From the NCBI GenBank assembly GCA_024404315.1, contig JAKSQD010000022.1:1-33412 (forward strand): 33,412 bases of DNA. The letters are read 5' to 3'. Made by a program: the position numbers and the translations under genes. This document shows positions 700-31,535 of this stretch, piece after piece. The stretch comes from Oscillospiraceae bacterium. GTDB lineage: Bacteria > Bacillota > Clostridia > Oscillospirales > Oscillospiraceae. A model generated the notes under the pieces. The model was not told the origin of the DNA. It ran no database searches and saw nothing but the letters and a program-made list of their open reading frames with translations. The number at the start of each line of letters is the position of its first letter. The stretch's first letter is position 1.

Positions 700-700
700 G

Positions 701-17406: not shown

Positions 17407-17431
17407 GGAAATTTCCTCCTAAGTTTAGAAA

Positions 17432-17881: not shown

Positions 17882-18647
17882 GTTGTAAACTCTCCTTAGA
17901 AAAGTCAAAATGGAAGGTATCAGATAACTTTTTGTTGCGGACTTTGTGTCCCTCAAGGTCGGAAAAGGTGATATACTTTTTCGTGTCCGTCCATGTGGTT
18001 GCAACGCCGTAGTCCAGCAGCTTTTCGATAAAGTCCTCACGGCTGAGAGCGGATTTCAGGACAGAACAGACTGCAACAGCGATCTCCAAAAGAAAACTGT
18101 GACCTTCTCCACGAGCAGCCTTCTCCAAAACCTGATGCTTGTCTTTGTTCCATGTGGTAGCGTCGGTTCGCTGCTGTCCATCGAAGGTTTTGCCTTTTTC
18201 GCAGATGGTCAGTCCAGCTTCAAGGCACAGATTATCAGAAAATTCCTTCGCCTCTTGCAGCCAATAGGCGGAGGTGTGGATTTTCTTCCCCGTCTGGTAA
18301 TTCACGGAGTTGACGATGATGTGAGAATGAACATGATCTCTGTCCACATGGGTGGAAACGAGACATTCATAGCCGTAGAACTCGCCAGATGCCCAGCGGA
18401 CAGCAATTTCATGAGCCTGTGCAGGCGTGACGCTCTCGTATGGAGAAAAACTTTGGATGTAGTGGTCGTACTGTCTGCCGCCAGTCTTGTGCCACACACG
18501 TTTTGTGGTTTCCATTTCCATCGTAGCCGACATAGGGTCGCAGTGGATGCCGGAGATCAGACGCTCCTCCGTTTTTTCCTTCTTCGTGATGTAGTCAACG
18601 GCAACGCTCAGCTTTGCCTTGGAGTGAACTGCTTTAATGACAGCCAA
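17508..18647 (-). CDS. relaxase/mobilization nuclease (MOBP-type), element 2
   Basis: A 379-residue relaxase with the metal motif HVDRDHVHSH (about 100-109) followed by IIVNSVN, and candidate nucleophile Y19. The first 270 residues are nearly identical to the element 1 relaxase. The C-terminal region, which overlaps the mobB-like frame, is divergent. The start is TTG at 18647 with GAGGAG upstream, overlapping mobC by 40 bases. It would process the oriT-like region upstream of mobC. With such similar catalytic domains, either relaxase might act on either element. Confidence 0.92.
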   Translation of the reverse strand: MAVIKAVHSKAKLSVAVDYITKKEKTEERLISGIHCDPMSATMEMETTKRVWHKTGGRQYDHYIQSFSPYESVTPAQAHEIAVRWASGEFYGYECLVSTHVDRDHVHSHIIVNSVNYQTGKKIHTSAYWLQEAKEFSDNLCLEAGLTICEKGKTFDGQQRTDATTWNKDKHQVLEKAARGEGHSFLLEIAVAVCSVLKSALSREDFIEKLLDYGVATTWTDTKKYITFSDLEGHKVRNKKLSDTFHFDFSKESLQREFTKHRREQAQRESQAAAATHRGVSERVQGLDVPRHHDADRPAGQAPLTDKAAGEQPRRLEDIIRQAKSGIIRGNDPSAREIEPDSEGFFSFDVLLGDSIRRADEHNAARTQNHTKKHRGMEL

Positions 18648-18925
18648 AGATTGTTCAGCTCCTCTCGGATAGCAGCCAGCTCACGCTGGTCAATGGGGAA
18701 GCCCATATTGGCAAGGCGGGTGAGCTGGTTCAGGTTGTTGCCGATGCTTTTGAGCTGTGCGGAAAAATCTCTCAGCCCGTCCGTGTTGATGATGGGTTTG
18801 TTGAGAATCGCCCTCAGCAGAAAATCCTGCTGTTTCAGTCCAGAGGCGGCAACTTTTTTCTTGATACGTTCATGCTGGTCATCTGACATTCGGATGACCA
18901 TTTGCTTGGTGTTTGTACGGGACAT
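18608..18925 (-). CDS. mobC: MobC relaxosome accessory protein, element 2
   Basis: A 105-residue protein differing from the element 1 MobC at only a few positions (QQDFLLRAILNKPIINTD versus QQDYLLRAILNKPIVNTD). It has the same ribbon-helix-helix-like N-terminus and C-terminal helices. The ATG at 18925 has AGGAGAA upstream. First gene of the mob operon. Confidence 0.9.
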   Translation of the reverse strand: MSRTNTKQMVIRMSDDQHERIKKKVAASGLKQQDFLLRAILNKPIINTDGLRDFSAQLKSIGNNLNQLTRLANMGFPIDQRELAAIREELNNLWLSLKQFTPRQS

Positions 18926-18929
18926 AAAA

Positions 18930-19480
18930 TTTCTCCTATGGCTCCGGTTAGTGGAACACGAAAGTTTCGGGGGTGTCCAGAGGAGCGTTTTCAAAAGCTG
19001 CCTTTGGGACTTGCCGTCCCCTTTGGGGAAGGGGGACCGCCGTAGGCGGTGGAAGGGGTGGGCGAAGCCCTGACCCTGCGACGCTTGCGGAGCTAACCAG
19101 CGAAAGTGTGAATTTCAGAATCGGATTGGATGATGGAATTACCGCTTCGCTGATGCGTCGCAGACTGGGGTTTGAAGGGGCAAAGCCACTCACAAGCGGG
19201 TCAAATGGCTATCATTTGGCGGAGCTTGCCGTCGTCAGAGCAAACTCCACGCCGCTTAGGTCGGCAGGCGTGCCGCCCGTGCGCTCTGTTCCGTTGCTCT
19301 TCCTCTCCAAACACGACTCGCTACGCTGGACTCGTGTTTGGTTTTGGGGAGGTTGCTCTGACGAGTGTGGGGACGACGGGAGGAGGGAGAATATTTGACT
19401 TGCCATTTGGAGGAAAATGTTCTCACTTCCTTCCACGAGTCCCCACATAGGAAGCTGCGAAGTAGATTCCGTAACCACGT
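18930..19480. other. putative oriT and structured noncoding region, element 2
   Basis: This is the counterpart of 3900-4345. Positions 19075-19230 are identical to element 1, including CTGCGACGC (19076-19084) and GCGTCGCAG (19155-19163). The flanks differ. An extra hairpin CCGCC/GGCGG lies near 19038-19049. The variable hairpin position holds GTCAGAGCAA paired with TTGCTCTGAC, enclosing CCAAACACGA/TCGTGTTTGG. The GTGGGGAC/GTCCCCAC pair around 19368-19448 is kept. No gene is seen here. Confidence 0.6.
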
Positions 19481-19533
19481 TTCAGAGGCTACTGTCTATC
19501 CTGAGAAGAAAAAACAGAAACTCTGAAAACTGT

Positions 19534-19560
19534 GGTTTTAATGTTGTTAATGGTGCGAAT
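19534..19560 (+). repeat. 9-bp array at the 3' end of the element 2 primase gene
   Basis: Three 9-bp units, GGTTTTAAT, GTTGTTAAT and GGTGCGAAT, overlap the primase stop codon. They are inverted relative to a similar array inside the gene at 21027-21053. Both arrays end in a CTGTGG or CCACAG flank. Confidence 0.55.
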
Positions 19561-21436
19561 GGAGAAACGCAGGATTCACAACGATCTGCATACCCGCTTT
19601 CCGTCCCGGTCTGCCGGTGGGCTGGGGCTGCTCTAAACGGAGGTAGCCGTGCTCTTGCAGCAGCTCCAACGTAGCGTCGATGTCATGAGCCTCCTTGAAG
19701 AACCGCCCTCGGCAGGCATGGTACAGCTCATAGTGAGTGACGCTCTCTTTTTTTAGGCTGAGAAGGGTGGAAGCCACAAGCAGCCCTTTCTCAATCGCTT
19801 GATCGTCCGCAATCTGGGTGTAGGCAAATTCCGCCTGTGCCAGAAAATAGCGTCCGATGGTGATGGCACGATGGACGGTCTTTGCGGAAATCTCCGTCTC
19901 CTCTGGATGCTCCGCAGCATGAAGCAGTCCGGCGATCCGCAGCACCGCTCCCGGATACTTGGATGCCCAGCCGGTTATTGCTTTACCCTTGCGGCAAAGA
20001 TACCGCTCATTGGCTAAAAAGAAATCGGAGAACAGCATAGCAGCGTCAGGGGAAAGGGTGAGCCTGATAGGTTCCTCTGTTCTGGGGAGAGCCATGAGGG
20101 AGAAAATCAGAAGTTCATATCGCTCACGCAGCTCCGGCGGAACGGGAGGAGATTCAAAAACTCGGTGTCCCACTCTGGACGGAGGGGAGCAGTAGAGGAA
20201 ACGGTCAAGTAGCCCTCGTCCCTCCATGGTGGCGTTGCTCATAATGTCGCCCAATACGCTGGGCTGAACGGTGAGAACAGCGGACAGGGTGGGGTGATTG
20301 ATATGCTCCGACTCCCTGCCCTTGCGGTCTACCACAATATCGTCCCCACAATGCCCCTTGAGCCATGTGTCGAGGTTGGGCTTCTTGCTGTATCGTCCTG
20401 AGAGAATGTCAAAAATGCCGCCCTCCGTAGACAGAACGGAGAAAATACCGTCATAATCCGCCAGCAGACTGGTGAGGGCTTCGGGGGTGCAGTCGTCCGC
20501 ATAGTATCGCATGGCTTTTATCACCGGCAGCTCTGCTAACTGAGCTTCCGCATCACGCAGCTCCGCTTCCATCTCAAAATCATCTTTTTTCTCCAAACGA
20601 TGCTCCAAACGCTTGATTTTCTTCTCCAAATTCTTACGAGCGATGAAATTATCTCGAAGTTCTTGCTCGTGCTGCTGGTTGAAATCCTGCTCATAACGGG
20701 AAATCACGGAGGTAATATCCCGCATGACGGCGGATTTTCGCTCACCGGGGGCAGCTACGATAACAAGGTAGAGGTTCATTGGCTCTATGTAGCCCAGCTT
20801 GCCCATGACCTCATATTTCCGCTGTAAAGCAATCGCCAGAACGCCGAGGGAAATGGTCGCTGCCATGTCGATGGAGGTCTGACTATGGACGGCGATGGCT
20901 TCCACATAATCCTGAACGGCTGCGGGCAGAGCGTCCAGAGGAAAGGGCGGGAGCTGGCTGGACTCAATCTGGAGAGGAACAAAGGGCTGGAAAGGAGAAT
21001 GTTCAAGAACGGCAGAGTATTGGGGTTTTACACCATTTACAACATTTACACCACAGGTTTCAAAATTGTTTTCTTCGTTTGGACGCTGCATGAAGCGGTC
21101 AAGAAGCTCCTGAAACTCCTTCGTGCGGTCACAGATAGGCAGGTCATTGACGTTGTTTCCTGTGAGGAGCACAGACGGCATGGATTCTGCCAGCTTGATC
21201 TCGATGCCTGCATCATAATTCGTGAGGTAATAACGAGTGGAATCCAGAGAAATGTTCTCAGCACGAAACAGGATTTGCAGCCCGTTCAGGTCGGGGGTGT
21301 ACTCCGTATAGCTGTTCATAAGTTCCACAATGGTGGCGGCTGGCTCTCGATAGTATCCAGAATCAGTGATACAGTCTTCGAGAATGAGGGCGTGACAATC
21401 AGATGAAATTTTTCTTGCGGGTGTTTGCGTAAACAT
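19547..21436 (-). CDS. DUF3987-like replication protein with degenerate primase end, element 2
   Basis: A 629-residue protein. Residues about 15-115 align with the primase-polymerase domain of the element 3 protein but begin late in it, and the catalytic-type IDLDD reads LILEDC. SGKGLHI is also altered. The primase C-terminal linker region is missing. From about residue 165 the DUF3987 helicase-like part is intact, with a P-loop-like APGERKS, a coiled coil and a C-terminal winged helix. It probably keeps an origin-binding/helicase role without primase activity. The ATG at 21436 has AGGAG upstream and a repressor-controlled promoter. Confidence 0.82.
   Translation of the reverse strand: MFTQTPARKISSDCHALILEDCITDSGYYREPAATIVELMNSYTEYTPDLNGLQILFRAENISLDSTRYYLTNYDAGIEIKLAESMPSVLLTGNNVNDLPICDRTKEFQELLDRFMQRPNEENNFETCGVNVVNGVKPQYSAVLEHSPFQPFVPLQIESSQLPPFPLDALPAAVQDYVEAIAVHSQTSIDMAATISLGVLAIALQRKYEVMGKLGYIEPMNLYLVIVAAPGERKSAVMRDITSVISRYEQDFNQQHEQELRDNFIARKNLEKKIKRLEHRLEKKDDFEMEAELRDAEAQLAELPVIKAMRYYADDCTPEALTSLLADYDGIFSVLSTEGGIFDILSGRYSKKPNLDTWLKGHCGDDIVVDRKGRESEHINHPTLSAVLTVQPSVLGDIMSNATMEGRGLLDRFLYCSPPSRVGHRVFESPPVPPELRERYELLIFSLMALPRTEEPIRLTLSPDAAMLFSDFFLANERYLCRKGKAITGWASKYPGAVLRIAGLLHAAEHPEETEISAKTVHRAITIGRYFLAQAEFAYTQIADDQAIEKGLLVASTLLSLKKESVTHYELYHACRGRFFKEAHDIDATLELLQEHGYLRLEQPQPTGRPGRKAGMQIVVNPAFLHSHH
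21027..21053 (-). repeat. 9-bp array inside the element 2 primase gene
   Basis: Three consecutive 9-bp units read TTTACACCA, TTTACAACA, TTTACACCA on the plus strand. In the gene they encode a GVNVVNGV linker. They are the inverse of the array at 19534-19560. Confidence 0.6.
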
Positions 21437-21459
21437 TGGGTATCTCCTAAACTTATAGC

Positions 21460-21551
21460 GTTCTTGATGGGAACACTATAACAGAGAAAGAAGTTCTTGT
21501 CAAGAACTAAAATAAAAAAGACTTGAAAAATCGTTCTTGTTAAGATACAAT
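21460..21551. promoter_or_regulatory. divergent promoters with three repressor operators, element 2
   Basis: Three copies of a GTTCTTG-centred operator lie between the primase and repressor genes: GTTCTTGATGGGAAC (21460-21474), the perfect palindrome GTTCTTGTCAAGAAC (21493-21507) and GTTCTTGTTAAGATA (21533-21547). The leftward promoter is TTGACA (21498-21503, inside operator 2) with TATAGT (21475-21480). The rightward promoter is TTGAAA (21523-21528) with TACAAT (21546-21551), its spacer filled by operator 3. Both spacers are 17 bp. Confidence 0.78.
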
Positions 21552-21594
21552 AAGGATAGAGATAAGGTAAACCGACCTCAAAGGAGAAAATGTG

Positions 21595-22314
21595 ATGAAA
21601 ACCGAAAAAATCAGACAAATCCGAAAAGAAAAGGAAATGACCCAAGAGGAGCTTGCCCGTAAGATCGGGGTCAAGCGTGCGGTCATTTCCAAGTATGAGA
21701 GCGGAAGTATCGAGCCGTCTCTGACCCAGCTTCAAAAGATTGCCGATGCGTTGGAGGTTCCTCTTGCGAAACTTTTGTTGGATGAGGGGGCTGTGAGCTT
21801 TACGGAGGGGATTCCTGCCATTGATGTTCCCGTGTATTTGAGGCAGATTCCTCTTGAATTGCAATGGCTGGCGGAGCAGTTGGACACCACGCCGGAGGTC
21901 ATCCAGAGTATCAACGACTTCGGTGCTGACTACGAGCGGGAGATTCTGGCTGCAACCTTGTACTTTGGCAAGGTGGACATTGAGGACTTGAGGAAGCAGA
22001 AAGCCCAGCAGGAGGACGCTTACGACCGTTTCTACAAGACCTACAACACCTCGACCTCCGAGCCGGAGCGGGAAGCTGCGTGGCAGTGCTGCCAGAAATA
22101 CAGCCGAAAGTCCCGTGAGCTGGGACAGAAGATCACCAGACAGGAGCGTTTGGCGGAGCAGAGGAAGAAGCTGGCAGAAAGATACGAGGCGAAGGTACAA
22201 AACGTCGTCGATCCGAGATTGGTTGCCGCTTTTCTGGCACTGAATGAGACGGGGAGGGAGGAAGCGATTAAGAGAGTGCAGGAGCTGGGAGAGTTGGAGA
22301 GGTATCGGGAATAA
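21595..22314 (+). CDS. XRE-family repressor, element 2
   Basis: A 239-residue regulator with an N-terminal XRE helix-turn-helix (about 4-60: MTQEELARKIGVKRAVISKY). A long helical, charged C-terminal region (about 70-239) probably oligomerizes. The ATG at 21595 is preferred over the GTG three bases earlier because AGGAG lies 8 bases upstream. It is divergent from the replication gene, with operators covering both promoters. It is therefore predicted to repress itself and replication, like phage or ICE maintenance repressors. There is no peptidase domain, so induction would need an antirepressor or dilution. Confidence 0.88.
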   Translation: MKTEKIRQIRKEKEMTQEELARKIGVKRAVISKYESGSIEPSLTQLQKIADALEVPLAKLLLDEGAVSFTEGIPAIDVPVYLRQIPLELQWLAEQLDTTPEVIQSINDFGADYEREILAATLYFGKVDIEDLRKQKAQQEDAYDRFYKTYNTSTSEPEREAAWQCCQKYSRKSRELGQKITRQERLAEQRKKLAERYEAKVQNVVDPRLVAAFLALNETGREEAIKRVQELGELERYRE

Positions 22315-22407
22315 AGTGATCTTTAATAGAAAAGAAATATGTGTTCTGTAATATTGATGCGAGATAGCTAATGTGAAATATGATATATTCTTTTTTTAGG
22401 TCACAGG

Positions 22408-22436
22408 TTGCTATTTCCGAAGTTGGAAGCTATAAT
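22408..22436 (+). promoter_or_regulatory. promoter of the AT-rich two-gene cassette
   Basis: TTGCTA (22408-22413) and a perfect TATAAT (22431-22436) with a 17-bp spacer, 60 bases before the GTG start of the membrane protein. The surrounding DNA turns markedly AT-rich from about 22315. Confidence 0.6.
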
Positions 22437-22495
22437 AGTTTGCAGAGAGTGGAAAAAATACGATAATGTTAAATGATAAATTGGAGGGGTGCATT

Positions 22496-23110
22496 GTGAA
22501 AAATCAAAAAACAGAGTCCCAAATAGCTGGAATTATGGAAGAGTATTCTCAAGTTAGAAGTATGCTTGAAAAGTCGTGCGAGAGACAAGATACTTATTTC
22601 TTATCTTCTTTTACTATTTTAGGAGTTGGAAATATTTTTCAAAAAGGATCTGTATTTTATCTTGGTATAACATTGTTATGCATATCTTTGTTCATAAACC
22701 TTAAAATTATCGAATGCAGGAATATGACATTTTACAATACGACGTATTTAGTAACGTTTTTAGAGGATGCTCAGTATGGGCTTTTGTACGAAACAAGAAT
22801 ACAAAAATTAAGAGGTATATTTTGGAAAGATAAATCTGGAATTACACAAAAAAATATATACAATCGGTTCTATCGTTTTGGATATTATATAAAAAATGGC
22901 ATTATCTGTATCATGGTTATTTTTCTTGCAATTCAAACCACAGAAAGTTTGTTACCGATTGATACAGTTGGAAAAAAACTAAAATTATTCCTCGTAATAA
23001 TTATTACAGTATTAAATCTTGTGTATTCCTATGTCTTATTAAATGATAGATTTTTAACAGGAGAATTTTTGAAAAAATGGAAAAAGATAAAGGAAGAAGA
23101 GAATACATAA
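22496..23110 (+). CDS. four-helix membrane protein of unknown function
   Basis: A 204-residue protein. The GTG at 22496 is chosen because GGAGGGG lies 7 bases upstream. An in-frame ATG at 22466 has no good site. An N-terminal helix (EEYSQVRSMLEKSCERQDTY) leads into two closely spaced membrane helices, a cytoplasmic helical segment, and two more membrane helices. The basic tail is KKWKKIKEEE. The layout resembles SLATT-type or other small membrane effectors, but no family is certain. Low GC and rare-codon use mark it as a recent import. It overlaps the next gene by 34 bases, so the two form one unit. Confidence 0.7.
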   Translation: MKNQKTESQIAGIMEEYSQVRSMLEKSCERQDTYFLSSFTILGVGNIFQKGSVFYLGITLLCISLFINLKIIECRNMTFYNTTYLVTFLEDAQYGLLYETRIQKLRGIFWKDKSGITQKNIYNRFYRFGYYIKNGIICIMVIFLAIQTTESLLPIDTVGKKLKLFLVIIITVLNLVYSYVLLNDRFLTGEFLKKWKKIKEEENT

Positions 23111-23850
23111 TATGTATTATTAACAGTGAGGCGGTATATTGCAACGCTTTTGAAACAATGTATCAATCAATTATCAGCAATAGCCCCCTGTTGTTAGAGA
23201 GAAAATGGGTTGTTTTATATACAGAGGATAATGAAGAAGGAATAGAACACTTAATAAAAAAATATCAGAATATTGAATTTATTAGTTATCCTGAATTTCA
23301 AAGTGTAGATAAATATGAACTGAAATTTTTGTTGATTAATTATATTGAATCAATTGAAGACAGTGAGAGTATAATCACGTATTTAGATACGGATCATATT
23401 TTTTTAAGAAATATGGATTTAATAGAGGTTGAGAACGGTAGAGTAATATTGAGTTCGGAAAAACGCAAGTTATCTATTAATGGGGAAAAGATAATACATT
23501 ATAATGCTTCATTTGTACGGGCAACGATAAACACATGGAAAGCGTTTATGTTAGACTGGAAGAAAACATATTCAGCATTAGAAGGAAAAGTCAATTCAAG
23601 ATTTAGAGAGGAAATTGCTTTTTCAATTGCTATCAGAGATAATAAGGTGCAAGTTACTCCGTTGTCAGGAGAGATTCAGTCAAACTTTCAAAATTATCAT
23701 TTAGAGTGCATATGCTTTCATTATGGAGGAGAGTACTCTTCGGCTAAAAAAATGAAAAATGTGTTGGTTGGAAATCATATAAGTATAGATACGTTGACAA
23801 ACCAAGAAAAGTGGCTTATCAGTCAAATACAATTCAATATGCCAAAATGA
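23077..23850 (+). CDS. glycosyltransferase-like protein (GT-A type, tentative)
   Basis: A 257-residue soluble protein. A Rossmann-like start (REYIICIINSEAVYCNAFETM) and a central TYLDTDHIFLRNMDL contain a DxD motif typical of metal-dependent GT-A sugar transferases. NASFVRAT and the C-terminal CFHYGGEY fit the acceptor/metal-binding end of such folds. The ATG at 23077 overlaps the membrane gene. AGGAG lies about 13 bases upstream, a long spacing, so coupling is likely. AT-rich like its partner. The donor and acceptor are unknown. The pairing with a membrane protein may modify a surface polymer or act in defence, but neither is shown. Confidence 0.6.
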   Translation: MEKDKGRREYIICIINSEAVYCNAFETMYQSIISNSPLLLERKWVVLYTEDNEEGIEHLIKKYQNIEFISYPEFQSVDKYELKFLLINYIESIEDSESIITYLDTDHIFLRNMDLIEVENGRVILSSEKRKLSINGEKIIHYNASFVRATINTWKAFMLDWKKTYSALEGKVNSRFREEIAFSIAIRDNKVQVTPLSGEIQSNFQNYHLECICFHYGGEYSSAKKMKNVLVGNHISIDTLTNQEKWLISQIQFNMPK

Positions 23851-23895
23851 TAATTTGCTTTGCTTTTTCTGCGGATAATTTTTTGAAATTTCCTA

Positions 23896-23924
23896 TTGAT
23901 TTTTTCTCCTCAATATCATATAAT
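23896..23924 (+). promoter_or_regulatory. promoter of the structured RNA
   Basis: TTGATT (23896-23901) and a perfect TATAAT (23919-23924) with a 17-bp spacer. Transcription would begin near 23931, right at the first hairpin of the RNA. Confidence 0.7.
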
Positions 23925-23930
23925 ATACTC

Positions 23931-24190
23931 AAGAACAGAGATGTTCTCGGTGATGAGAGCACCGAAAAAAGTTGAGCTGCATGTGGAGCAGGGTAATTTT
24001 CCACACCCTTCGGTATTTTAACTGGATACCACGCTTGGCAGCGAAGATGAACGCTGTAGTCCACACGGAGGACTTAACGATTTCCGTACCTTTTTGACAT
24101 CTTAACTGGATGTCACGGCTGGCAACCAGCAGAAAACTCTCAAACGAAAAGAATTTAGGGGAAGGGACGGCGATTCTCTTCCCCTTTTTT
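23931..24190 (+). ncRNA. tandem structured RNA upstream of the PBECR4-like gene
   Basis: About 260 nt run from the promoter to an intrinsic terminator. Hairpins in order are GAACA/TGTTC with GAGA loop (23933-23946) and TCGGTG/CACCGA (23947-23965). Module 1 has TGTGGA/TCCACA (23982-24005), GGTAT/ATACC with loop TTTAACTGG (24012-24030) and CGCT/AGCG (24032-24043). Module 2 has ACGGA/TCCGT (24065-24087), GACAT/ATGTC with loop CTTAACTGG (24096-24114) and GCTGG/CCAGC (24118-24130). The terminator is GGGGAAG/CTTCCCC plus T6 (24158-24190). The two modules are 84 nt apart. Their central stems differ by compensating changes while the loop is kept. This could be an RNA antitoxin, a riboswitch-like attenuator or a small RNA. 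Confidence 0.62.
24158..24190 (+). terminator. terminator between the structured RNA and the PBECR4-like gene
   Basis: GGGGAAG (24158-24164) and CTTCCCC (24178-24184) followed by six T. It ends 20 bases before the next ATG, so the gene would be expressed mainly by read-through. Confidence 0.85.
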
Positions 24191-24210
24191 CTTGAAAGAG
24201 CAGGGTATAT

Positions 24211-24849
24211 ATGGCGACGAAACAAGAGAAGAAAGAAAAAATACGGCGTGAGATCATTGATGCGGCAAAAATCTATTCTCAGGACTTAGCCGGTAAAGCG
24301 TTCCTGTATGTGTACGGCGATGAGTATTTTGAGATACTGTTTAAAACCAATCGCTTTACTCACTTAACGGGAGTTAAATCCAATTTAAGTGCTGGACAAG
24401 TATATAATTACGCTAAAGAAGGGATTCTGACAACGAATCAGTTCTTTTTTGACCAAAAGCATCCATACGCTAACGCACGAAAAAAGCTGTCCTGTCTGAA
24501 AAGGCTGCCCGAATTGACCACAAATATGGTTTGCGTACTGAAAAATATGCAGACAGTGACGGTTACATACAAAATCGGCTTGACAAATCTGGAATTTACC
24601 TTGGGATTGACCGAAAACGTGGATAAACAGGGCAATAAGATTGATAATTTCTTTTTTCCAATGACGCTGCGGGTGAATGATAAGTCGGTGGATAGAAGTG
24701 CAGATGGGGAAATAGTCGATTTTATCTTTATGCGTGATGCGTCAAAGTCTACCTATACGGATTTGATTGTCGCTGACGCAGATAAAACGATACCCCATTG
24801 TGTCGCACATTTGATTGATTCTAAGTTCTATGAGGAGCAAATCAGATAA
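24211..24849 (+). CDS. PBECR4-like (barnase/EndoU/ColicinE5/RelE-superfamily) protein
   Basis: A 212-residue soluble protein. A basic N-terminal helix (KQEKKEKIRREIIDAAKIY) is followed by a segment resembling the PBECR4 domain: FKTNRFTHLTGVK (about 50-62), FFDQKHPYANARKKL (about 89-103), then a beta-rich half with TVTYKIGLTNLEFTLGL and FFFPMTLRV. PBECR domains are predicted RNases of phages and mobile elements, and candidate catalytic residues are His and Lys/Arg in these blocks. The family call is from memory of the pattern. It has only a weak ribosome binding site. No protein antitoxin gene adjoins it; the structured RNA lies directly upstream. Confidence 0.6.
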   Translation: MATKQEKKEKIRREIIDAAKIYSQDLAGKAFLYVYGDEYFEILFKTNRFTHLTGVKSNLSAGQVYNYAKEGILTTNQFFFDQKHPYANARKKLSCLKRLPELTTNMVCVLKNMQTVTVTYKIGLTNLEFTLGLTENVDKQGNKIDNFFFPMTLRVNDKSVDRSADGEIVDFIFMRDASKSTYTDLIVADADKTIPHCVAHLIDSKFYEEQIR

Positions 24850-24903
24850 AATCCTGCGTTTTATGAGGTATATCATTGATTAGTGGTTAAAGGAAGGAAT
24901 AAA

Positions 24904-25548
24904 ATGTATTGTTTACCTGAAATGGACAGCTCCATCGTCCAAAAACTGGTCAGCAATGAGCTGATTCGAGGCTTTCATCACCTGTTCAACACCAGTGATG
25001 CGGTCAATGTGCCAAATCCTGATAACGTGGAGATGTTTATTGAGTGTTCCGATACGCTCTATCAAATCTCCTTGGAGCATCCAGAGCTGGTGCAGGGCTT
25101 GACCGTCAAGCTGGGAATCATGCTCAAGGCTCTCAAGGACGCAGAATATGAGTATACGTTTGACGAATTTGGAGAGTTCCTGCTGTATGAGATGATTCGC
25201 AATATCGATGCGGATGTAGAGGATGGTCTGATATGGGAGTTAGGCGGAACGTGGTTTGACAGGCAGGAGCTTCGAGAGGAGCTTACGCAGTATTACGAGG
25301 ACTGCTATGCTGTCGATGAAGAACCAGAGGAGAAGAAACGTGACATGATCGAGCGGACGGTGGTTGCCGTGACCTGTTTCCCCAGACTGGCGGATGAGCT
25401 GAAAGGGAATACAGTTATGTCCTTCCTGTTTGGTGACACGGATTTCATGCTGTTCTATGACGAGAAATTTGACCGAGTGATTGACTTCATAAGGGAGGAC
25501 TGGGACTGCGGGTTCTCCGGCGGACAGATGCAGAAATATCCCCTTTGA
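24904..25548 (+). CDS. conserved right-end protein of unknown function, element 2 copy
   Basis: A 214-residue protein nearly identical to the one at 14615. Changes include SSIVQ for SPIIQ, TVKLG for TIKLG, NIDAD for NVDAD, ELTQ for ELSQ and RDMI for REMI. The ATG at 24904 has AAAGGAAGG upstream; an in-frame start 21 bases earlier has no such site. The upstream sequence is unrelated to that of copy 1, so the gene is probably co-transcribed with the PBECR4-like gene here. No known domain is recognised. Confidence 0.8.
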   Translation: MYCLPEMDSSIVQKLVSNELIRGFHHLFNTSDAVNVPNPDNVEMFIECSDTLYQISLEHPELVQGLTVKLGIMLKALKDAEYEYTFDEFGEFLLYEMIRNIDADVEDGLIWELGGTWFDRQELREELTQYYEDCYAVDEEPEEKKRDMIERTVVAVTCFPRLADELKGNTVMSFLFGDTDFMLFYDEKFDRVIDFIREDWDCGFSGGQMQKYPL

Positions 25549-25791
25549 GAGAAATATTCAGTCCTCTGAAAAAACTCCAAAAAGCAACAAAAAACCGCAT
25601 TTGAAGAAAAGTTCAAACGCAGATTAAAAATAGTATTTGGGAACATTTTGGGACGAATCGTGGGAACGAGTTGGGAACAAAGGGGACGAACAGGGGTAAA
25701 ATGGGAACGGACAAGGTTCTGATTTTATCACTTTTAAACAGGAAAACATCAAATAATACTGGCAAATACCCGATAAAACGTCTCCGGTCAT
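24904..25791 (+). repeat. 888-bp right-end repeat, copy 2
   Basis: Matches 14615-15502 over its full length, with scattered substitutions in the gene and none noticed in the 243 bp after it. It includes the GGGAAC boxes (15350 and following, plus 10289). In element 2 these boxes differ from the left-end GGAAAC type. Confidence 0.88.
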
Positions 25792-25842
25792 CTTGGTAAG
25801 GATGAGGTCAGCGGTCCGAATCCGCTTAGCAGCTCCATTAAA
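25792..25842 (+). repeat. attachment site copy 3 (right end of element 2)
   Basis: A 51-bp copy of the tRNA-Thr 3' half, from the anticodon loop to CCATTAAA. Similarity to copies 1 and 2 stops exactly where their terminator begins. It is either the ancestral tRNA end or the left end of element 3. Confidence 0.9.
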
Positions 25843-25878
25843 TCCACTTGATTCTTAATTGAATTGAGTGGATTTTTT
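25841..25878 (+). terminator. terminator after attachment copy 3
   Basis: AATCCACT (25841-25848) pairs with AGTGGATT (25867-25874), followed by a T run. It plays the same role as the AAGTTCTGAA terminator at the other two copies but has an unrelated sequence. Confidence 0.8.
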
Positions 25879-25929
25879 GTATTTCTGCAACTTTCTGATG
25901 GATTTAGCCCCTTTCGTCAACTTGACGAA

Positions 25930-26098
25930 CCGTGTTTCCACGGGAGGGACTCACACAGAAACTCACACCAACAAATGGAGCTGCACTCCCTCACCCCTAC
26001 CAGGGATGATAAGAAGGGAACATTTTAGGGTACGCAGCGTTTTACAGATACGTTTTTTCAAATCATGCGGCTTTCGCACTCACACATGACACTCACAC
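25930..26098. repeat. putative arm-type sites and hairpin, element 3 left end
   Basis: CCGTG-TTTC-CACGG hairpin (25930-25943), two pairs of ACTCACAC boxes (25949, 25961 and 26078, 26091) and one GGGAACATTTT box (26016-26026). The last ACTCACAC overlaps the integrase stop. GTGTGAG boxes, the same word on the other strand, also lie next to the element 1 integrase stop. No gene is seen between 25879 and 26092. Confidence 0.5.
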
Positions 26099-27367
26099 AG
26101 CGGACTGTTCTTCGGAACGGTCCTTTTTCTTTTTGCCGTCCTTTTTATCCTCCGGCTGCTCCTCCAATGCGTCACGGAACACCTGACTGGCTCGCCTCAT
26201 GCTCTCTTGATCGGAATGGGTATACATCCGAAGGGTCACGGACTTGTCGTAGTGTCCCAGCTTCTCGGAGATGCTGGCAATGTCCGCTCCGTGAGTAATG
26301 GCGATGCTGGCGAAGGTGTGACGCAGCTTATGAGGGTGGAAGTCCTCAATACCGTGGCGGTTGGAGAACTGCTTCATATACCGTGTCGGGCTGGTGGGGA
26401 ACATCGGCTCAGGACTGTCATCCTGCGTGAACACCCATTTGGACACGAATTTCTGCTCTCGATGAAACAGCTTTGCCAGATGTAGAATTTTGGGGTCGAT
26501 GTCGATGGTGCGGATGCGACGGCTCTTGGTGGTGGACACGTAGAGCCCCGTCTTCGGCGTGTAGTTGACCGTGCGGCGGATGGATACCGTATGCTTGTCA
26601 TAGTCGAAATCGTCCCACTGCAAGCCGCAGCACTCGCCACGGCGGATGCCAGTGTCAGCCATAATGCGGATGTAAAGCTGCCATTTCAGCGGTTCCTGAC
26701 TGAGACACTTGAAAATCTGACGAACCTCCTCCACGGTGTAGGCGGGAGTTTCCTCCTCGATCACCTCGTCCTTGCGGGGCTTGGGGCGGTCTACCTTGTC
26801 CATGGGGTTCTTTTCCACAACGTCCGTCTTGTACGCCATCTTGAAAAGGCTCATGAGGACAGTGTAGATTTTCGCTACAGTGCTGTGAGCCTTGCCGGTG
26901 TTCTGCACATTCAGAAGCAGCGTGATAATCTGTGCCGAGGTAACGTCGGGCATTTTGATGTTGCCGATGGCAGGGTAGATGTGGTTTTTCAGATTGCCCT
27001 GAAAGCTGGCGATGGTGTTGCCCGCACAGTGGACGGACATGGCGGGGATGAATACCTGTTCGCCGTACTGCTTGACCGTCATGATTTTGGCAGCTTCTTC
27101 CGCTTCTTTTGCCTTTTTCTCTGCTTCTTCGGTTCGGCTGAGGACTTCACCGGACCTGCATTGACGCTCAAACTCAGCTGCTACCTTTTTCAGTTCACGG
27201 TCAATGGCTTTCTGACTCCAACCATCGGGCGGATACCAGCGTTTGGTCAGGGTGGGGCGATCACGTTCAACGTGACAGCGGATTTCATAAAAGGTTTTTC
27301 CGGTTTTGGTGGTCTTCTTGCTGATAGATGCCAAATAATACAACTCCTTTTGGTTATGGCTCTTCAT
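26093..27367 (-). CDS. tyrosine recombinase/integrase of element 3
   Basis: A 424-residue integrase unrelated in detail to the other two. It has an N-terminal AP2-like arm-binding region (about 10-45), a Lys/Glu/Ala helix, a SAM-like core-binding domain (about 90-200) and a catalytic domain. Motifs include R in TGIRRGECCGL, K in TTKSRRIRTI, HKLRHTF, LGH and Y in RMYTHS. The basic C-terminus ends PEDKKDGKKKKDRSEEQSAV. The ATG at 27367 overlaps the end of the upstream regulator by 14 bases. Frames opening further upstream run through that regulator. It resembles Tn916/Lactococcus-phage type integrases. Its position beside attachment copy 3 suggests a tRNA-Thr target. Confidence 0.9.
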   Translation of the reverse strand: MKSHNQKELYYLASISKKTTKTGKTFYEIRCHVERDRPTLTKRWYPPDGWSQKAIDRELKKVAAEFERQCRSGEVLSRTEEAEKKAKEAEEAAKIMTVKQYGEQVFIPAMSVHCAGNTIASFQGNLKNHIYPAIGNIKMPDVTSAQIITLLLNVQNTGKAHSTVAKIYTVLMSLFKMAYKTDVVEKNPMDKVDRPKPRKDEVIEEETPAYTVEEVRQIFKCLSQEPLKWQLYIRIMADTGIRRGECCGLQWDDFDYDKHTVSIRRTVNYTPKTGLYVSTTKSRRIRTIDIDPKILHLAKLFHREQKFVSKWVFTQDDSPEPMFPTSPTRYMKQFSNRHGIEDFHPHKLRHTFASIAITHGADIASISEKLGHYDKSVTLRMYTHSDQESMRRASQVFRDALEEQPEDKKDGKKKKDRSEEQSAV

Positions 27368-27992
27368 CAGGCTCTGCAACATCCGACAGAAAATCGTCGG
27401 GGAACTCAAAGTTGTCGGGAAAATCGGGGTTCTGATACTCTGGAATCTTTGCAAGCTCCTCCAACCGCTCAATGGCGATTTCCTGTGCCCTTGCGTTCAG
27501 CTTGGCAAAGGCGATGCGGAGCTTTGCGTCACGGATTTCATATTCCTCCTGACGAAGTGCCTTTTCTGATTCTTGAATTTTGGTTTCGACCTCCAGCATT
27601 TCCTGAAAGGCTGCGGAGGTCTTGTCCAGAGGCATACCGAGGGCATTTAAAATACTGTCCAGAGCGGCAACGGATAATCCGCCGTTTTGCCCCTCTGCCT
27701 GCTGGATTTCGTGGACGGACAGACCGGATTTCGCAGCGAGTTCCTCCTGTGAAAAACCTTGATTCTGCCGTAAAAGGTTCAGAAGAGAGCCGGTATTCCA
27801 ACCAACGAGGTATTCTGGTGCGACATTCAGCACTTCTGCCAGCTTTTGCAGCTGATCCAGAGACGGCTCACGCTGTCCCTTTTCGTAGCGCATAATGGTG
27901 ACACCGGTTACGCCGATGGCTTTGCCTAACTCCTCCTGTGTCATGGGGATGGATTCTCTCGTTTCTTTAATACGTTCACCTAATGTGTTCAT
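27354..27992 (-). CDS. double-XRE transcriptional regulator, element 3
   Basis: A 212-residue protein with two helix-turn-helix domains in tandem: XRE-1 about residues 5-62 (MTQEELGKAIGVTGVTIMRY) and XRE-2 about 68-125 (FSQEELAAKSGLSVHEIQQ). A helical acidic tail ends PDEEP. Two recognition domains in one chain are unusual and could bridge neighbouring operators. It is divergent from the excisionase-like gene and overlaps the integrase gene, so it probably controls excision. Its minus-strand -10 is a good TATAAT (28010-28015) with only a weak -35. Confidence 0.88.
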   Translation of the reverse strand: MNTLGERIKETRESIPMTQEELGKAIGVTGVTIMRYEKGQREPSLDQLQKLAEVLNVAPEYLVGWNTGSLLNLLRQNQGFSQEELAAKSGLSVHEIQQAEGQNGGLSVAALDSILNALGMPLDKTSAAFQEMLEVETKIQESEKALRQEEYEIRDAKLRIAFAKLNARAQEIAIERLEELAKIPEYQNPDFPDNFEFPDDFLSDVAEPDEEP

Positions 27993-28058
27993 AATTTATC
28001 ACCCACGGGCATTATAACACAGACAAACCAAAAAGGAAAGAGGAAAATGAAAAAATTC

Positions 28059-28136
28059 TTGACAATAAACCAAAACGGTTATATAATACAGGCAACCGAA
28101 ACGGTAAGAGAACAACAAGAGAAATCCGAAATGGTT
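28059..28136 (+). promoter_or_regulatory. promoter and three operators for the element 3 excisionase operon
   Basis: TTGACA (28059-28064) and TATAAT (28082-28087) with a 17-bp spacer form a perfect promoter. Operators follow the palindrome AACCGAAACGGTT: AACCAAAACGGTT (28068-28080, in the spacer), AACCGAAACGGTA (28094-28106) and ATCCGAAATGGTT (28124-28136). A degenerate fourth copy lies near 28025. The double-XRE protein is the obvious candidate ligand. Confidence 0.78.
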
Positions 28137-28162
28137 AATCTGCAACAGAAGGAGGTGCATCT

Positions 28163-28345
28163 ATGACCAATTACAAGGATACTCCCTTTATGAAGATTCC
28201 CGATGCCTGTCGAGTGACCGGTCTTTCCCAGTATTATCTGAGAAACGGCTGCAAGGACGGCACGATTCCCCACATCAAGAGCGGGCGGGTCTACTTCATC
28301 AACGTCCCTAAGCTGCTGGAACAGCTCGGCGTGGCTGGACAGTAA
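28163..28345 (+). CDS. excisionase-like HTH protein, element 3
   Basis: A 60-residue protein with a MerR/excisionase-type fold: KIPDACRVTGLSQYYLRNGC, then a wing HIKSGRVYFINVPKLLEQLG. AAGGAGG precedes the ATG. It is driven by the strong operator-controlled promoter divergent from the regulator and integrase genes. It is predicted to promote excision once repression is lifted. In contrast to elements 1 and 2 it lies with the replication genes rather than between mob and integrase. Confidence 0.8.
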   Translation: MTNYKDTPFMKIPDACRVTGLSQYYLRNGCKDGTIPHIKSGRVYFINVPKLLEQLGVAGQ

Positions 28346-28507
28346 AGGCAACACCGCACAATAGTCGAATGTGCGTCTTGCTTGTCCTTTTACTCCCAAA
28401 TTTGCCGTTAAACCCTTGAAATACGTCAGTATTCCTGCGGCTTTCCCAACAAATTTGAAAGCAAAATTACTGCGCAATACACACATCCCTATTGTGCGGT
28501 GTTGCCT
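28346..28507. mobile_element. MITE-like element (162 bp)
   Basis: Perfect 19-bp terminal inverted repeats, AGGCAACACCGCACAATAG (28346-28364) and its complement (28489-28507), enclose about 124 bp with no gene. It starts one base after the excisionase stop codon. Clear target-site duplications are not visible beyond one or two A/T bases. Size and termini fit a non-autonomous transposon. Confidence 0.68.
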
Positions 28508-28512
28508 AAAAA

Positions 28513-28540
28513 GAGTCCTTACCCGGCAAGGCAAGGACTC
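28513..28540 (-). terminator. hairpin after the MITE-like element
   Basis: GAGTCCTT (28513-28520) pairs with AAGGACTC (28533-28540). Five A precede it, so it reads as an intrinsic terminator on the minus strand, although no minus-strand gene feeds it. It may also slow rightward transcription into the primase gene. Confidence 0.5.
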
Positions 28541-28640
28541 TCAATGACGACTCAATCAGCGGCTGCTGTGTGAATCATCTCGTAGCAAAGATAGTATAGC
28601 ACAAATGCCGCTGAAATAAAAGTGAAAAACAGGAGTTTTT

Positions 28641-31034
28641 ATGAATTTTTCAGCATTACCCAAAGAAATAAAAGAAAATGGCCTGTTCTGCTGCTGGCGG
28701 CTGGAATGTCGTGACGGCAAGCCCACGAAGGTTCCCTATAACCCTATGACGGGTGGTCGAGCACAGAGCAACGATGCGTCTACCTTCACCGATTTTCGCA
28801 CTGCTGTTTCCCGTATGGGGGAGTATTCCGGCTTGGGAATCGGCATCTTTAACGGTATTTGTGCCATTGATCTGGATGATTGCGTCTCTGACTCCGGCTA
28901 TTATAAGCCTGAAGCGGCGGAGATCGTGGAACTGATGCACAGCTATACTGAGCTCAGCCCCAGCGGAAAAGGTCTGCACATCCTCTTTCAGGCGGATGGT
29001 TTTCAGTATGACAAGGAAAAGTATTACATTATGAACCACGGGGCAGGAGCGGAAGCCTATGTTGCCGGTGCGACCCAGAAGTATGTGACCGTAACCGGAA
29101 AGGTTGAGTGTGACCTGCCCTTCGGAGATCGCAGTTCGGAATTGAAGGTTTTTCTGGAACGGTATATGAGGAGAAACACCCTCGACAAAACCCCCGACAC
29201 TGTTGGCAGAAATGGCGTAAATGGCAGAAATGATTTTTATGGCGTAAATTCCACGCTGGATGATGATGCTCTGCTGGAGAAAGCCTTTCATAGCCGCAGC
29301 GGTGCAGCCTTTCAGCAGCTTTGGAACGGGAATATCAGCGGTTATCAGTCCCAATCCGAGGCAGATATGGCTCTGTGCAGTCAGCTTGCCTTTTGGACAG
29401 GGCGAAATGCCGAGCAGATGGACAGGATCTTTCGGCGGTCCGGTCTGATGAGGGAGAAGTGGGACAGACCTCAGAGCGGCACGACCTACGGAGCGATTAC
29501 CATTCAGAACGCCATCCAAGGCTGTACCAGCGTCTATGAGCCGAAAAAAGGCAAAAACTCGATTCAGGCCGTACAAAAGCCTATGGAATTTCCACCGCTT
29601 TTGCCCTTAAAGCCAGAGAAAAACCAGCTTCCTGCCTTTCCTGTGGAGTGCTTGCCCCAAACGATCAGGGATTACGTTCAGGCGGTGTCGGTTCACAGTC
29701 AGACGGCGGTGGATATGGCGGCGGTCATCGCCTTGGGGACGCTGGCGGTGTGTACACAGGGAAAGTTTCTGGTGCAGGGGACTCCGGGGTATTTTGAACC
29801 ACTGAGTTTGTATGTGGTGGTCATCGCTTCTCCCGGTGAGCGGAAGTCAGGTGTCATGCGGGACATGACGCAGGTGATCTACCAATACGAACAGGAGTTC
29901 AACGAGGCGAGAGAACCGGCGATTCGCTCCTATAAGCAGAAACGGGAGGCATTACAGCGGAAAATCAATGGTTTGGAGCGGAAATTGGAGAACTCCGGCG
30001 GTCATGAGCTGGAAATGGAGCTGCAAGATCTGAAAAATCAGTTGGAGGATTTGCCAGAGGTCAACCTAGTCCGATTCTTCGCTGACGATTGCTCCAGCGA
30101 GGCATTGACCAGCCTTTTGGCGAACAATCACGGTAGATTTGCGGTGATTTCCACCGAGGGCGGCATTTTTGACATCATGGCGGGACGGTATTCCAGTAAA
30201 ACCAATATTGATGTGTGGCTCAAGGGTCACTGCGGCGATGCCATTCGGGTGGACAGACTGGGACGAGAAGCGGAGTACATCCCTCATCCCGCACTGTCCG
30301 CCATCCTGACCATTCAGCCCAGTGTTCTGGACGATATTATGTCCAACGACGCTATGAACGGGCGGGGACTGATTGCCCGGTTTCTCTACGCCTGTCCACA
30401 GTCCACCATCGGCAGGAGAGTGTTCACCGCTCCGCCCATCCCTGTGGAGATTTCCACAGCCTATCAGCGGCGAATCTATGAGCTGATGGACATTCAGACC
30501 GTGGACAGCCCCTTTATTCTGAACCTTTCCGCCAAGGCGACGGCGGTCATCTCCGACTATTTTCAGGAGCATGAGCGGTTTCTGGTTGGGGAGGGTCAGG
30601 CTATCTCTGACTGGGCGAGCAAATACATTGGAGCGGTGCTACGGATTGCAGGGTTGCTTCATGTGGCGGAGGACTCCGAAGAGCGGGAGATTTCGGGGGA
30701 GACCATGAGGCGAGCCATCCAAATCGGTGAATATTTTCTGGCACATTCCACCTATGCCTATTCCATGATGGGGACGGATTTGACCATCAAAAAGGCGGCG
30801 TTTGTGCTGGCAAAGCTCCGCAAGAACCGGACGCAGGAGATCAAACGCTCTGAGCTGCTGCGGATGTGCCGAGGGAAGTTCTTCAAGAAGGTGGAGGACA
30901 TCGTGCCCACGTTGGAGCTGTTGGAGAGCCACAACTATCTGAGGTTGGAGGAGCCGATGCGGACAACGCCGGGCAGACCTCCCGACTGGCGTGTGGTGGT
31001 GAATCCGGCGGTGTATCAGGAGGTGGCAGGATGA
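28641..31034 (+). CDS. primase-polymerase/DUF3987 replication protein, element 3
   Basis: A 797-residue replication protein. The N-terminal primase-polymerase-like domain (1-175) has catalytic-type D77-x-D79 (AIDLDD) and SGKGLHI (108-114). A linker with Asn-Gly-Val/Arg repeats (190-202) leads to a primase C-terminal helical domain (about 205-295). The DUF3987 helicase-like part (about 320-797) has P-loop-like ASPGERKSG (396-404), a coiled coil (about 420-475), STEGGIFD and a C-terminal winged helix. It would prime and unwind the excised element. AGGAG lies 6 bases before the ATG. The small Cys-rich gene overlaps its stop (ATGA). It is the intact counterpart of the eroded element 2 protein. 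Confidence 0.88.
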   Translation: MNFSALPKEIKENGLFCCWRLECRDGKPTKVPYNPMTGGRAQSNDASTFTDFRTAVSRMGEYSGLGIGIFNGICAIDLDDCVSDSGYYKPEAAEIVELMHSYTELSPSGKGLHILFQADGFQYDKEKYYIMNHGAGAEAYVAGATQKYVTVTGKVECDLPFGDRSSELKVFLERYMRRNTLDKTPDTVGRNGVNGRNDFYGVNSTLDDDALLEKAFHSRSGAAFQQLWNGNISGYQSQSEADMALCSQLAFWTGRNAEQMDRIFRRSGLMREKWDRPQSGTTYGAITIQNAIQGCTSVYEPKKGKNSIQAVQKPMEFPPLLPLKPEKNQLPAFPVECLPQTIRDYVQAVSVHSQTAVDMAAVIALGTLAVCTQGKFLVQGTPGYFEPLSLYVVVIASPGERKSGVMRDMTQVIYQYEQEFNEAREPAIRSYKQKREALQRKINGLERKLENSGGHELEMELQDLKNQLEDLPEVNLVRFFADDCSSEALTSLLANNHGRFAVISTEGGIFDIMAGRYSSKTNIDVWLKGHCGDAIRVDRLGREAEYIPHPALSAILTIQPSVLDDIMSNDAMNGRGLIARFLYACPQSTIGRRVFTAPPIPVEISTAYQRRIYELMDIQTVDSPFILNLSAKATAVISDYFQEHERFLVGEGQAISDWASKYIGAVLRIAGLLHVAEDSEEREISGETMRRAIQIGEYFLAHSTYAYSMMGTDLTIKKAAFVLAKLRKNRTQEIKRSELLRMCRGKFFKKVEDIVPTLELLESHNYLRLEEPMRTTPGRPPDWRVVVNPAVYQEVAG
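29205..29249 (+). repeat. 9-bp array inside the element 3 primase gene
   Basis: Five consecutive 9-bp units: GGCAGAAAT, GGCGTAAAT, GGCAGAAAT, GATTTTTAT, GGCGTAAAT. They encode the Asn-Gly-rich linker between the primase and helicase halves. The inverse array lies at 31245-31289. Confidence 0.7.
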
Positions 31035-31261: not shown

Positions 31262-31289
31262 CGTTTATGCCATTTGCGCCATTTCTGCC
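31245..31289 (-). repeat. inverted 9-bp array after the element 3 primase operon
   Basis: Five units on the plus strand: ATAAACGCC, ATTTATGAC, GTTTATGCC, ATTTGCGCC, ATTTCTGCC, followed by ACAGG. They are inverse to the array at 29205-29249. The last is the exact complement of GGCAGAAAT. Confidence 0.7.
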
Positions 31290-31299
31290 ACAGGTGGAC

Positions 31300-31499: not shown

Positions 31500-31502
31500 A
31501 GA

Positions 31503-31535
31503 AATAAAAAAGAGACAACCATTAAGGCTGTCTCT
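31503..31535 (-). terminator. terminator of the minus-strand small peptide transcript
   Basis: On the minus strand AGAGACA pairs with TGTCTCT and is followed by a T run (31503-31510). It ends a transcript of about 225 nt from the promoter at 31738-31766. Confidence 0.75.

What the first reader, a model, noticed from the sequence alone, without database searches (positions are those of the whole stretch)
23896..24849. Tandem covarying RNA modules, terminator and a PBECR4-like nuclease: candidate new RNA-controlled toxin
Seen: a consensus promoter, then two 84-nt-spaced modules, each with three hairpins in the same order. The central hairpin is GGTAT-TTTAACTGG-ATACC in one and GACAT-CTTAACTGG-ATGTC in the other, so stem pairs change together while the loop stays. 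A strong terminator sits 20 bases before the gene, which has a weak ribosome binding site and no protein antitoxin beside it. Known: type III toxin-antitoxin loci (ToxIN, CptIN, TenpIN) have promoter, RNA repeats, terminator, then an endoRNase gene. Inference: this may be a type III-like system with a PBECR4 toxin, or a ligand-sensing attenuator.
Basis: partly seen in the sequence, partly recalled or inferred. Interest (0 to 1): 0.88.

Follow-up and report, generated by a model that had tools for sequence, protein, structure and literature searches.

The report
RNA-antitoxin toxin family with phage decoys
A bacterial gene for a probable RNA-cutting toxin sits right behind a knotted RNA that most likely keeps the toxin switched off, similar pairs recur in many other bacteria and some phages, and at least one kind of phage seems to carry only the RNA.

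Summary
At 23896-24849 lie a promoter-like site, a structured RNA of two three-hairpin modules, a strong terminator and an intact PBECR4 (PF18813) gene. Two relatives with intact genes (L078, L107) keep all 48 base pairs tested, 14 with changes on both sides.

The arrangement recurs. 70 of 76 PBECR4 rows have a terminator-like hairpin just upstream, against 24 of 70 control ORFs. Leaders of 53 of 66 tree rows are of three types: the window's (A); a tandem RNA (B) unknown to Rfam, with three covarying pseudoknots, also kept in 17 sequences outside the model; and drum RNA (RF02958). RNA type follows the toxin tree. Drum lies directly before PBECR4 in 12 of 23 places. RNA copies without the gene exist, including two near-identical ~93-kb viral contigs with no PBECR4 match.

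Best reading: a type III-like toxin-antitoxin family, not found in the literature searched, whose pseudoknotted RNA binds and inhibits the PBECR4 ribonuclease; the terminator keeps RNA in excess, and some phages may carry decoy antitoxins. Toxicity, binding and defence are untested. The AlphaFold model was unusable.

The parts
23896..23924 (+). sigma-70-like promoter, TTGATT-17-TATAAT
   Evidence: 10 of 12; not rarer than in shuffles; lies about 7 nt before the RNA
23932..23947 (+). 5' hairpin P0, AGAACA-GAGA-TGTTCT
   Evidence: one pair changed on both sides among window, L078, L107
23948..23964 (+). hairpin H0, CGGTG-ATGAGAG-CACCG, loop proposed to pair with 24137-24141
   Evidence: loop pairing AGAG/CTCT present in 3 of 3 but invariant, so no covariation evidence within type A
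23971..23974 (+). strand S0 (GTTG) after an A-tract, proposed to pair with loop CAAC 24123-24126
   Evidence: present in 3 of 3, invariant; the equivalent pairing covaries in type B
23983..24056 (+). module 1: hairpins 23983-24004, 24012-24030, 24039-24056
   Evidence: 7 pairs with changes on both sides in these three helices
24065..24130 (+). module 2: hairpins 24065-24087, 24096-24114, 24118-24130
   Evidence: (5 pairs with changes on both sides)
24131..24141 (+). AGAAAA linker (possible processing site) and strand S2 CTCTC, proposed partner of the H0 loop
   Evidence: sequence; same order, A-tract then S2, in type B
24149..24193 (+). intrinsic terminator between RNA and gene
24211..24849 (+). 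PBECR4 (PF18813) predicted ribonuclease, 212 aa, H51 and T152 conserved
   Evidence: E 1.9e-26; H51 71 of 71 rows, S/T at 152 71 of 71

Best explanation
The locus is a type III-like toxin-antitoxin system of a PBECR4 family. A constitutive promoter makes a two-module, probably pseudoknotted RNA; most transcripts stop at the terminator before the gene, and a minority read through and make a little PBECR4 ribonuclease. The RNA binds the ribonuclease directly and blocks it. When the balance is disturbed, for example by a phage that stops host transcription, the toxin is freed and cuts RNA, which arrests the cell and the phage. Shown here: the anatomy, the conserved RNA folds, the pairing of RNA type with toxin clade, and conserved residues like those expected of the active site. 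Inferred: read-through ratio, binding, toxicity, processing at the A-rich linkers, and defence.
For: Terminator-like hairpin upstream of 70 of 76 PBECR4 rows (near-copies included) against 24 of 70 control ORFs. Type A: 48 pairs, 142 of 142 cells kept, 14 pairs changed on both sides, slid controls 26-48% paired. Type B: 99.3% of 546 cells paired, 54 cells changed on both sides, slid controls 27-54%; 17 sequences outside the model: 98.4% of 432 cells paired, 51 such cells, and the pairings L1-S1 and L2-S0, which the model did not contain, 97-100% paired. Drum (an independent Rfam model) lies within about 75 nt upstream of a PF18813 match in 12 of 23 places in 391 genomes (one of the 12, G479, is below the drum cut-off and beside a truncated gene). 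Type B outside the model: PBECR4 sequence directly behind 8 of 20 places. RNA-type labels need 8 changes on a 66-row toxin tree against 30.8 in shuffles. H51 and S/T152 in 71 of 71 rows. Phage phi1605, not in the model: RNA at 63.5 bits just upstream of its PBECR4 with three re-matched pseudoknots. RNA without PBECR4 in two near-identical viral contigs, as expected of an antitoxin acting in trans; precedent phiTE pseudo-ToxI (PMC3475682, passages). AbiF/RCd22 is a reported RNA antitoxin with the same layout, two motifs and a terminator (PMC12373285, passages).
Against: No experiment. No sequence match to any PDB chain and a poor AlphaFold model (pLDDT 48), so kinship with ToxN is not shown. 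Many RNAs stand alone: 9 of 23 drum places have no PBECR4 and 2 more only fragments; 10 of 29 type-B places have none (two of the ten, L160 and L162, are weak RNA matches). This fits orphan antitoxins but also an RNA with its own job. The two closing pairings of type A are invariant, hence unproven in the window. The promoter match is not rarer than chance. 13 of 66 tree rows have other leaders or none seen.
Confidence: 0.75

Rival explanations
1. The RNA is a cis-acting riboswitch or attenuator: it senses a ligand, tRNA or protein and switches the terminator to control PBECR4, without touching the protein.
For: Terminator directly before the gene; structured leader; some control in cis is expected in any case, as reported for RCd22.
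Against: No excess complementarity of terminator arm to RNA: 5.3 nt against 5.1 in shuffles over 72 loci; three single loci (L091, L093, L120) exceed most shuffles, and the window's 6 nt is reached by 6 of 60 (a crude exact-match test). RNA-terminator units occur without PBECR4 behind them. Several unalignable leader types serve one gene family, unlike one aptamer for one ligand.
Confidence: 0.13
2. The RNA is a guide or activating cofactor of the PBECR4 nuclease rather than its inhibitor.
For: Same co-inheritance evidence; RNA and nuclease adjacent at most loci that have both.
Against: No variable spacer seen; loop sequences of type B are tied up in covarying pairs. An RNA-only phage copy makes more sense for an inhibitor.
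Confidence: 0.06
3. Independent small RNA genes (drum and relatives) that merely sit next to PBECR4 on mobile elements.
For: Solo copies: 9 of 23 drum places, 10 of 29 type-B places; the window carries mobile-element genes.
Against: In the 12 drum places with PF18813 the gap to the match is 54-71 nt, same strand, and RNA type follows the toxin clade across 66 rows.
Confidence: 0.06

Closest known systems
Type III toxin-antitoxin systems (ToxIN/AbiQ, CptIN, TenpIN)
   Same: Promoter, repeated structured RNA with pseudoknots and A-rich sites, terminator, then endoribonuclease gene (criteria in PMC8860590, passages).
   Different: Toxin is PBECR4 (PF18813), which matches no PDB chain by sequence; types A and B are one composite RNA with two modules and long-range pairings, not several short independent repeats.
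AbiF-RCd22 (abiF RNA, RF03085)
   Same: Rfam RNA motif in two copies, terminator, downstream toxin; RNA acts in cis and in trans (PMC12373285, passages).
   Different: No abiF RNA match in the window or in the loci scanned; the gene matches PF18813 only.
drum RNA, RF02958
   Same: Leader of 29 of 38 rows of the other main PBECR4 clade; followed by terminator and gene.
   Different: The window RNA does not match RF02958. Rfam lists drum as an sRNA; I found no function or PBECR4 link for it in the library searched (listing, one passage). The 2017 paper that I recall as its source was not held.
PBECR nucleases of phages and conjugative elements
   Same: Same family name and predicted histidine plus S/T active site (PMC5512222, passages).
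   Different: There described as effectors of phages and mobile elements; the passages seen mention no RNA partner.
phiTE pseudo-ToxI (phage antitoxin mimic)
   Same: Phage DNA carrying antitoxin-like RNA without the toxin (PMC3475682, passages); compare L172/L174.
   Different: Here the RNA is of type B, inside a tRNA-rich island; activity untested.

Membership tests
Type III toxin-antitoxin system | promoter before the RNA | tested here: inconclusive
   10 of 12 consensus match in place, but as frequent in shuffles
Type III toxin-antitoxin system | tandem repeated RNA upstream of the gene | tested here: met
   two modules, spacing 84, kept in L078 and L107
Type III toxin-antitoxin system | terminator between RNA and toxin gene | tested here: met
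   70 of 76 rows against 24 of 70 controls
Type III toxin-antitoxin system | RNA forms pseudoknots | tested here: inconclusive
   type B: supported by covariation; window type A: pairings possible but invariant
Type III toxin-antitoxin system | gene encodes an endoribonuclease | tested here: inconclusive
   PF18813 match, conserved H51 and S/T152; activity not measured
Type III toxin-antitoxin system | toxin arrests growth; RNA binds it and rescues | not testable with these tools
   needs expression and co-purification
ToxN/AbiQ toxin family | kinship detectable by sequence profile | tested here: not met
   Pfam gives PF18813 alone; profile A1 finds no PDB chain at E <= 5
ToxN/AbiQ toxin family | same protein fold | not tested
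   model too poor for a fold search; second job not accepted
drum RNA RF02958 | window RNA reaches the Rfam gathering score | tested here: not met
AbiF-RCd22 | abiF RNA motif in the window RNA | tested here: not met
PBECR4 PF18813 | protein reaches the Pfam cut-off | tested here: met
   94 bits against 27
Riboswitch / attenuator | excess complementarity between terminator arm and RNA | tested here: not met
   5.3 against 5.1 nt over 72 loci, exact matches only

The most novel reading that the evidence does not exclude
Several orphan structured RNAs (drum, types A and B, perhaps DUF3800-XI and others) are antitoxins of RNA-controlled toxins, and phages carry banks of toxin-free antitoxin decoys inside tRNA islands, as in L172/L174, where a DUF3800-XI RNA, a PBECR4-type RNA, tRNAs and a ROOL RNA stand close together. 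Decoys would neutralise the host's toxins while the tRNAs replace what the ribonucleases destroy.
Probability: 0.3. Interest if true: 0.93.

Novelty: new variant of a known kind. Interest (0 to 1): 0.82.

Why it matters
If right, it adds a widespread toxin-antitoxin family (PBECR4 in 65 of 348 genomes of the bacterial family of Anaerostipes MSJ-23, 58 over the cut-off). It gives a function to drum RNA, an Rfam family for which I found none assigned, and describes an antitoxin RNA with three interlocked pseudoknots. It also suggests how to read phage RNA islands: look for toxin-free copies of antitoxin RNAs. The core claim is testable with two plasmids in a laboratory strain.

Tried and rejected
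Rfam on the window RNA: nothing at gathering score, only chance-level matches at E 0.8 and 2.4. A T-box-like reading (TGG..ACC) was considered from the sequence and dropped: no Rfam match, no antiterminator. PADLOC and NCBIfam give nothing for the PBECR4 protein. Structure: the five-sequence AlphaFold model was too poor; a second job with nine sequences was not accepted, so no fold search was made. Window protein against phages: no match; against plasmids: one, pCY360. Drum-clade protein profile in viral contigs: none and in phages: none, although a drum DNA pattern found two viral contigs, both with PBECR4 sequence behind it, one interrupted. My automatic pseudoknot finder recovers the type-B pairings but gives unrelated best pairs for many other rows, the window included, so it only suggested type B. 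One-module RNAs (L002/L003, L136 = L157, L156, L158, L161) accompany no full-length toxin, but independent cases are few and two-module RNAs also occur with broken genes (L096, L122, L124), so I do not lean on it. Literature: 'PBECR4' 0 papers; 'PBECR' 2 papers, one naming only PBECR3 (PMC9403866, passages); drum RNA only in RNA-structure and Rfam papers besides an unrelated chemistry paper (listing); no linking paper noticed in the listings. The library lacks most subscription journals and bioRxiv preprints.

Full report
What is there. The window holds, on the + strand, a sigma-70-like promoter (23896-23924), a structured RNA from about 23931 to 24141, an intrinsic terminator (stem 24157-24185, then T's) and a 212-aa ORF at 24211-24849 that matches PBECR4, PF18813, with 94 bits. 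The RNA has two 5' hairpins and two modules of three hairpins in the same order, 84 nt apart. Rfam matches nothing here.

Homologues of the window's RNA. The same RNA lies upstream of a PBECR4 relative in [Ruminococcus] faecis and Anaerostipes sp. MSJ-23 (L002, L003), in genome G515 (L078) and in an IMG/VR contig (L107; protein 56% identical). L078 and L107 have open genes and two modules; L002 and L003, near-copies of each other, have one module, and the L002 frame contains a stop (the same stop is visible in L003). Over window, L078 and L107 all 48 pairs of the ten helices are kept (142 of 142 cells), 14 pairs change on both sides, and slid controls pair only 26-48%. Two long-range pairings (AGAG/CTCT between the H0 loop and the strand after AGAAAA; GTTG/CAAC between the strand after H0 and the last hairpin loop) exist in all three but never vary, so for type A they are a proposal.

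The arrangement recurs at PBECR4 genes. PF18813 was found in 12 of 300 genomes of the window's family, 29 of 391 of its class and 65 of 348 of the family of Anaerostipes MSJ-23 (58 over the cut-off, loci fetched for the best 30 places). Reading upstream of the fetched genes shows mostly the same order: promoter-like site, structured RNA, terminator, gene. A terminator-like hairpin lies within 130 nt upstream of 70 of 76 PBECR4 rows against 24 of 70 other ORFs from the same loci; rows include near-copies and broken genes. The six failures are L006, L010, L017, L080, L103 and L131; L006 and L131 show a hairpin by eye with a short T run.

Drum RNA. Rfam places drum RNA (RF02958) directly upstream of PBECR4 in 5 of 15 loci given to, 16 of 20 (chosen because they were not type B by eye) and 1 of 20 (mostly types A, B and others; none of the nine type-B and two type-A loci given there matched any Rfam family). 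The independent test starts from the RNA: in 391 genomes drum occurs at 23 places. At 12 of them a PF18813 match on the same strand follows after 54-71 nt; one of these, G479, is below the drum cut-off and beside a truncated gene. Two more have PBECR4 fragments (L057, weak, E 0.011; L058, by eye), and nine have none (L052, L055, L056, L063, L065-L068, and L069 at a contig end). Two viral contigs found with a drum pattern both have PBECR4 sequence behind it, one interrupted.

Type B RNA. A second RNA, without an Rfam match, precedes PBECR4 genes nearer to the window's. It has a hairpin GGTG-loop-CACC, then two modules each ending in a hairpin such as GTTGG-nnnn-CAAC and an A-tract. Of 25 extracted segments, 21 were aligned (L007, L009, L082 and L136 left out; L100/L101 and L112/L113/L122 are near-copies). 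I saw three loop pairings by eye: first loop with the strand after the last A-tract, module-1 loop with the strand after the first A-tract, module-2 loop with the strand after the first hairpin. On the 21, 99.3% of 546 cells pair, 15 of 26 pairs and 54 cells change on both sides; slid structures pair 27-54%. I then took 17 sequences not used for the model (three of them, L007, L009 and L103, already seen by eye; some close to model sequences): 98.4% of 432 cells paired, 18 of 26 pairs and 51 cells changed on both sides, slid controls 23-52%. Two of the three pseudoknots were not in the model that aligned them. In Erysipelothrix phage phi1605, whose PBECR4 is annotated as a hypothetical protein, the RNA lies just upstream (63.5 bits) and all three pairings are kept with other letters: GCTTGA/TCAAGC, TTGG/CCAA, CAAG/CTTG.

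Type B, reverse test. Model R1 finds 29 places in 265 genomes: 17 with PBECR4 sequence directly behind (own profile, E < 1e-4; some copies broken), one weak fragment (L156), one with PBECR4 on the other strand about 1.2 kb away (L159) and ten with none. This test is partly circular: nine of the 17 (L138, L139, L143, L144, L145, L147, L153, L163, L164) are places whose sequences built the model. Without them it is 8 of 20. The drum test above has no such flaw.

RNA and toxin are inherited together. On a tree of 66 PBECR4 proteins (rows under 165 aa and five near-copies left out) the A/B rows and the drum rows separate at a branch with 100/99 support. The four labels (A 3, B 21, drum 29, other 13 rows) need 8 changes against 30.8 in shuffles, none of 200 as low; remaining near-copies and long branches (L092, L093, L095) are cautions. 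Among 71 rows of at least 165 aa H51, G54 and S/T at 152 are present in all. This resembles the histidine and S/T pair described for five of six PBECR families (PMC5512222, passages). Another leader, in L092, reads by eye as two tandem simple pseudoknots.

RNA without toxin. Type-B 3' motif patterns hit seven viral contigs. Five have PBECR4 behind the RNA, two of these being contigs already known and one (L170) with an interrupted frame. The other two, L172 and L174, about 93 kb with identical RNA stretches and so probably one kind of virus, have a type-B RNA (53.3 bits) and no PF18813 match in the held contigs, which may be fragments. The RNA lies between tRNA-Asn and tRNA-Met in an island with eleven tRNAs on the L172 stretch, a ROOL RNA and, 21 nt before it, a DUF3800-XI RNA. 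None of the eight ORFs listed on the 8.5-kb stretch matches a DUF3800 family; the rest of the contig was not searched for one. The loop pairings are kept by eye, with one mismatch in the first. A phage RNA that mimics a type III antitoxin is known: phiTE pseudo-ToxI (PMC3475682, passages).

Mechanism. The layout fits the criteria used for type III systems (promoter, tandem RNA, terminator, toxin ORF; pseudoknots; A-rich cleavage sites; PMC8860590, passages), and there is a reported parallel: RCd22, with two abiF motifs and a terminator, represses AbiF in cis and binds it and suppresses its toxicity in trans (PMC12373285, passages). I therefore propose direct inhibition of the PBECR4 ribonuclease by the RNA, with the terminator setting the RNA excess. 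An attenuator is less likely: terminator arms have no more exact complementarity to the RNA than to shuffles (5.3 against 5.1 nt, 72 loci), and RNA-terminator units exist without the gene. Binding, toxicity, processing and defence are inference.

Known or new. It works like a type III system as far as anatomy can tell; membership is open until toxicity and RNA binding are shown. It is not a ToxN family member by sequence, and the window RNA is not drum. The literature searches found no link between PBECR4 and an RNA antitoxin, in an incomplete library; the 2017 paper that I recall as the source of drum was not held. I rate it a new variant of a known kind.

Noticed in passing
L172 1456-7393 (RNAs at 4309-4355 and 4377-4511); L174 same region: Two ~93-kb viral contigs have an RNA island: 11 tRNAs on the L172 stretch, a ROOL RNA, a DUF3800-XI RNA and a type-B PBECR4 RNA, with no PBECR4 match in the contigs and no DUF3800 among the eight ORFs of the stretch.
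   Followed up: partly
L065, L066, L067 (genome G537) and L063; probably L068: Solo drum RNAs at several places in one genome inside nearly identical flanking sequence, as if the RNA were spread as a repeat.
   Followed up: no
L092, upstream of the PBECR4 ORF: A different leader that reads by eye as two tandem simple hairpin-type pseudoknots, in look closest to ToxI repeats.
   Followed up: no
L099 (Butyrivibrio proteoclasticus plasmid pCY360) 3741-3960: Nearest outgroup toxin of the window's clade; its leader is not visibly alignable to type A but also has distant complementary strands (CACTGGA/TCCAGTG) and a terminator.
   Followed up: partly
L002, L003, L136/L157, L156, L158, L161: RNAs with only one module accompany broken or missing toxins, as if two modules were needed to hold an intact toxin.
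   Followed up: partly
window 57-5765 and 15822-32303: Mobile-element genes: integrases (701-2134, 15822-17096), relaxase (2532-3617), P4-type primase (4455-5765), two DUF3987 proteins (19547-21436, 28641-31034), Mob_Pre (31818-32303); five tRNAs at 57-578.
   Followed up: no
control genomes: A PBECR4 match over cut-off in the Lactococcus lactis control genome, a possible laboratory model.
   Followed up: no
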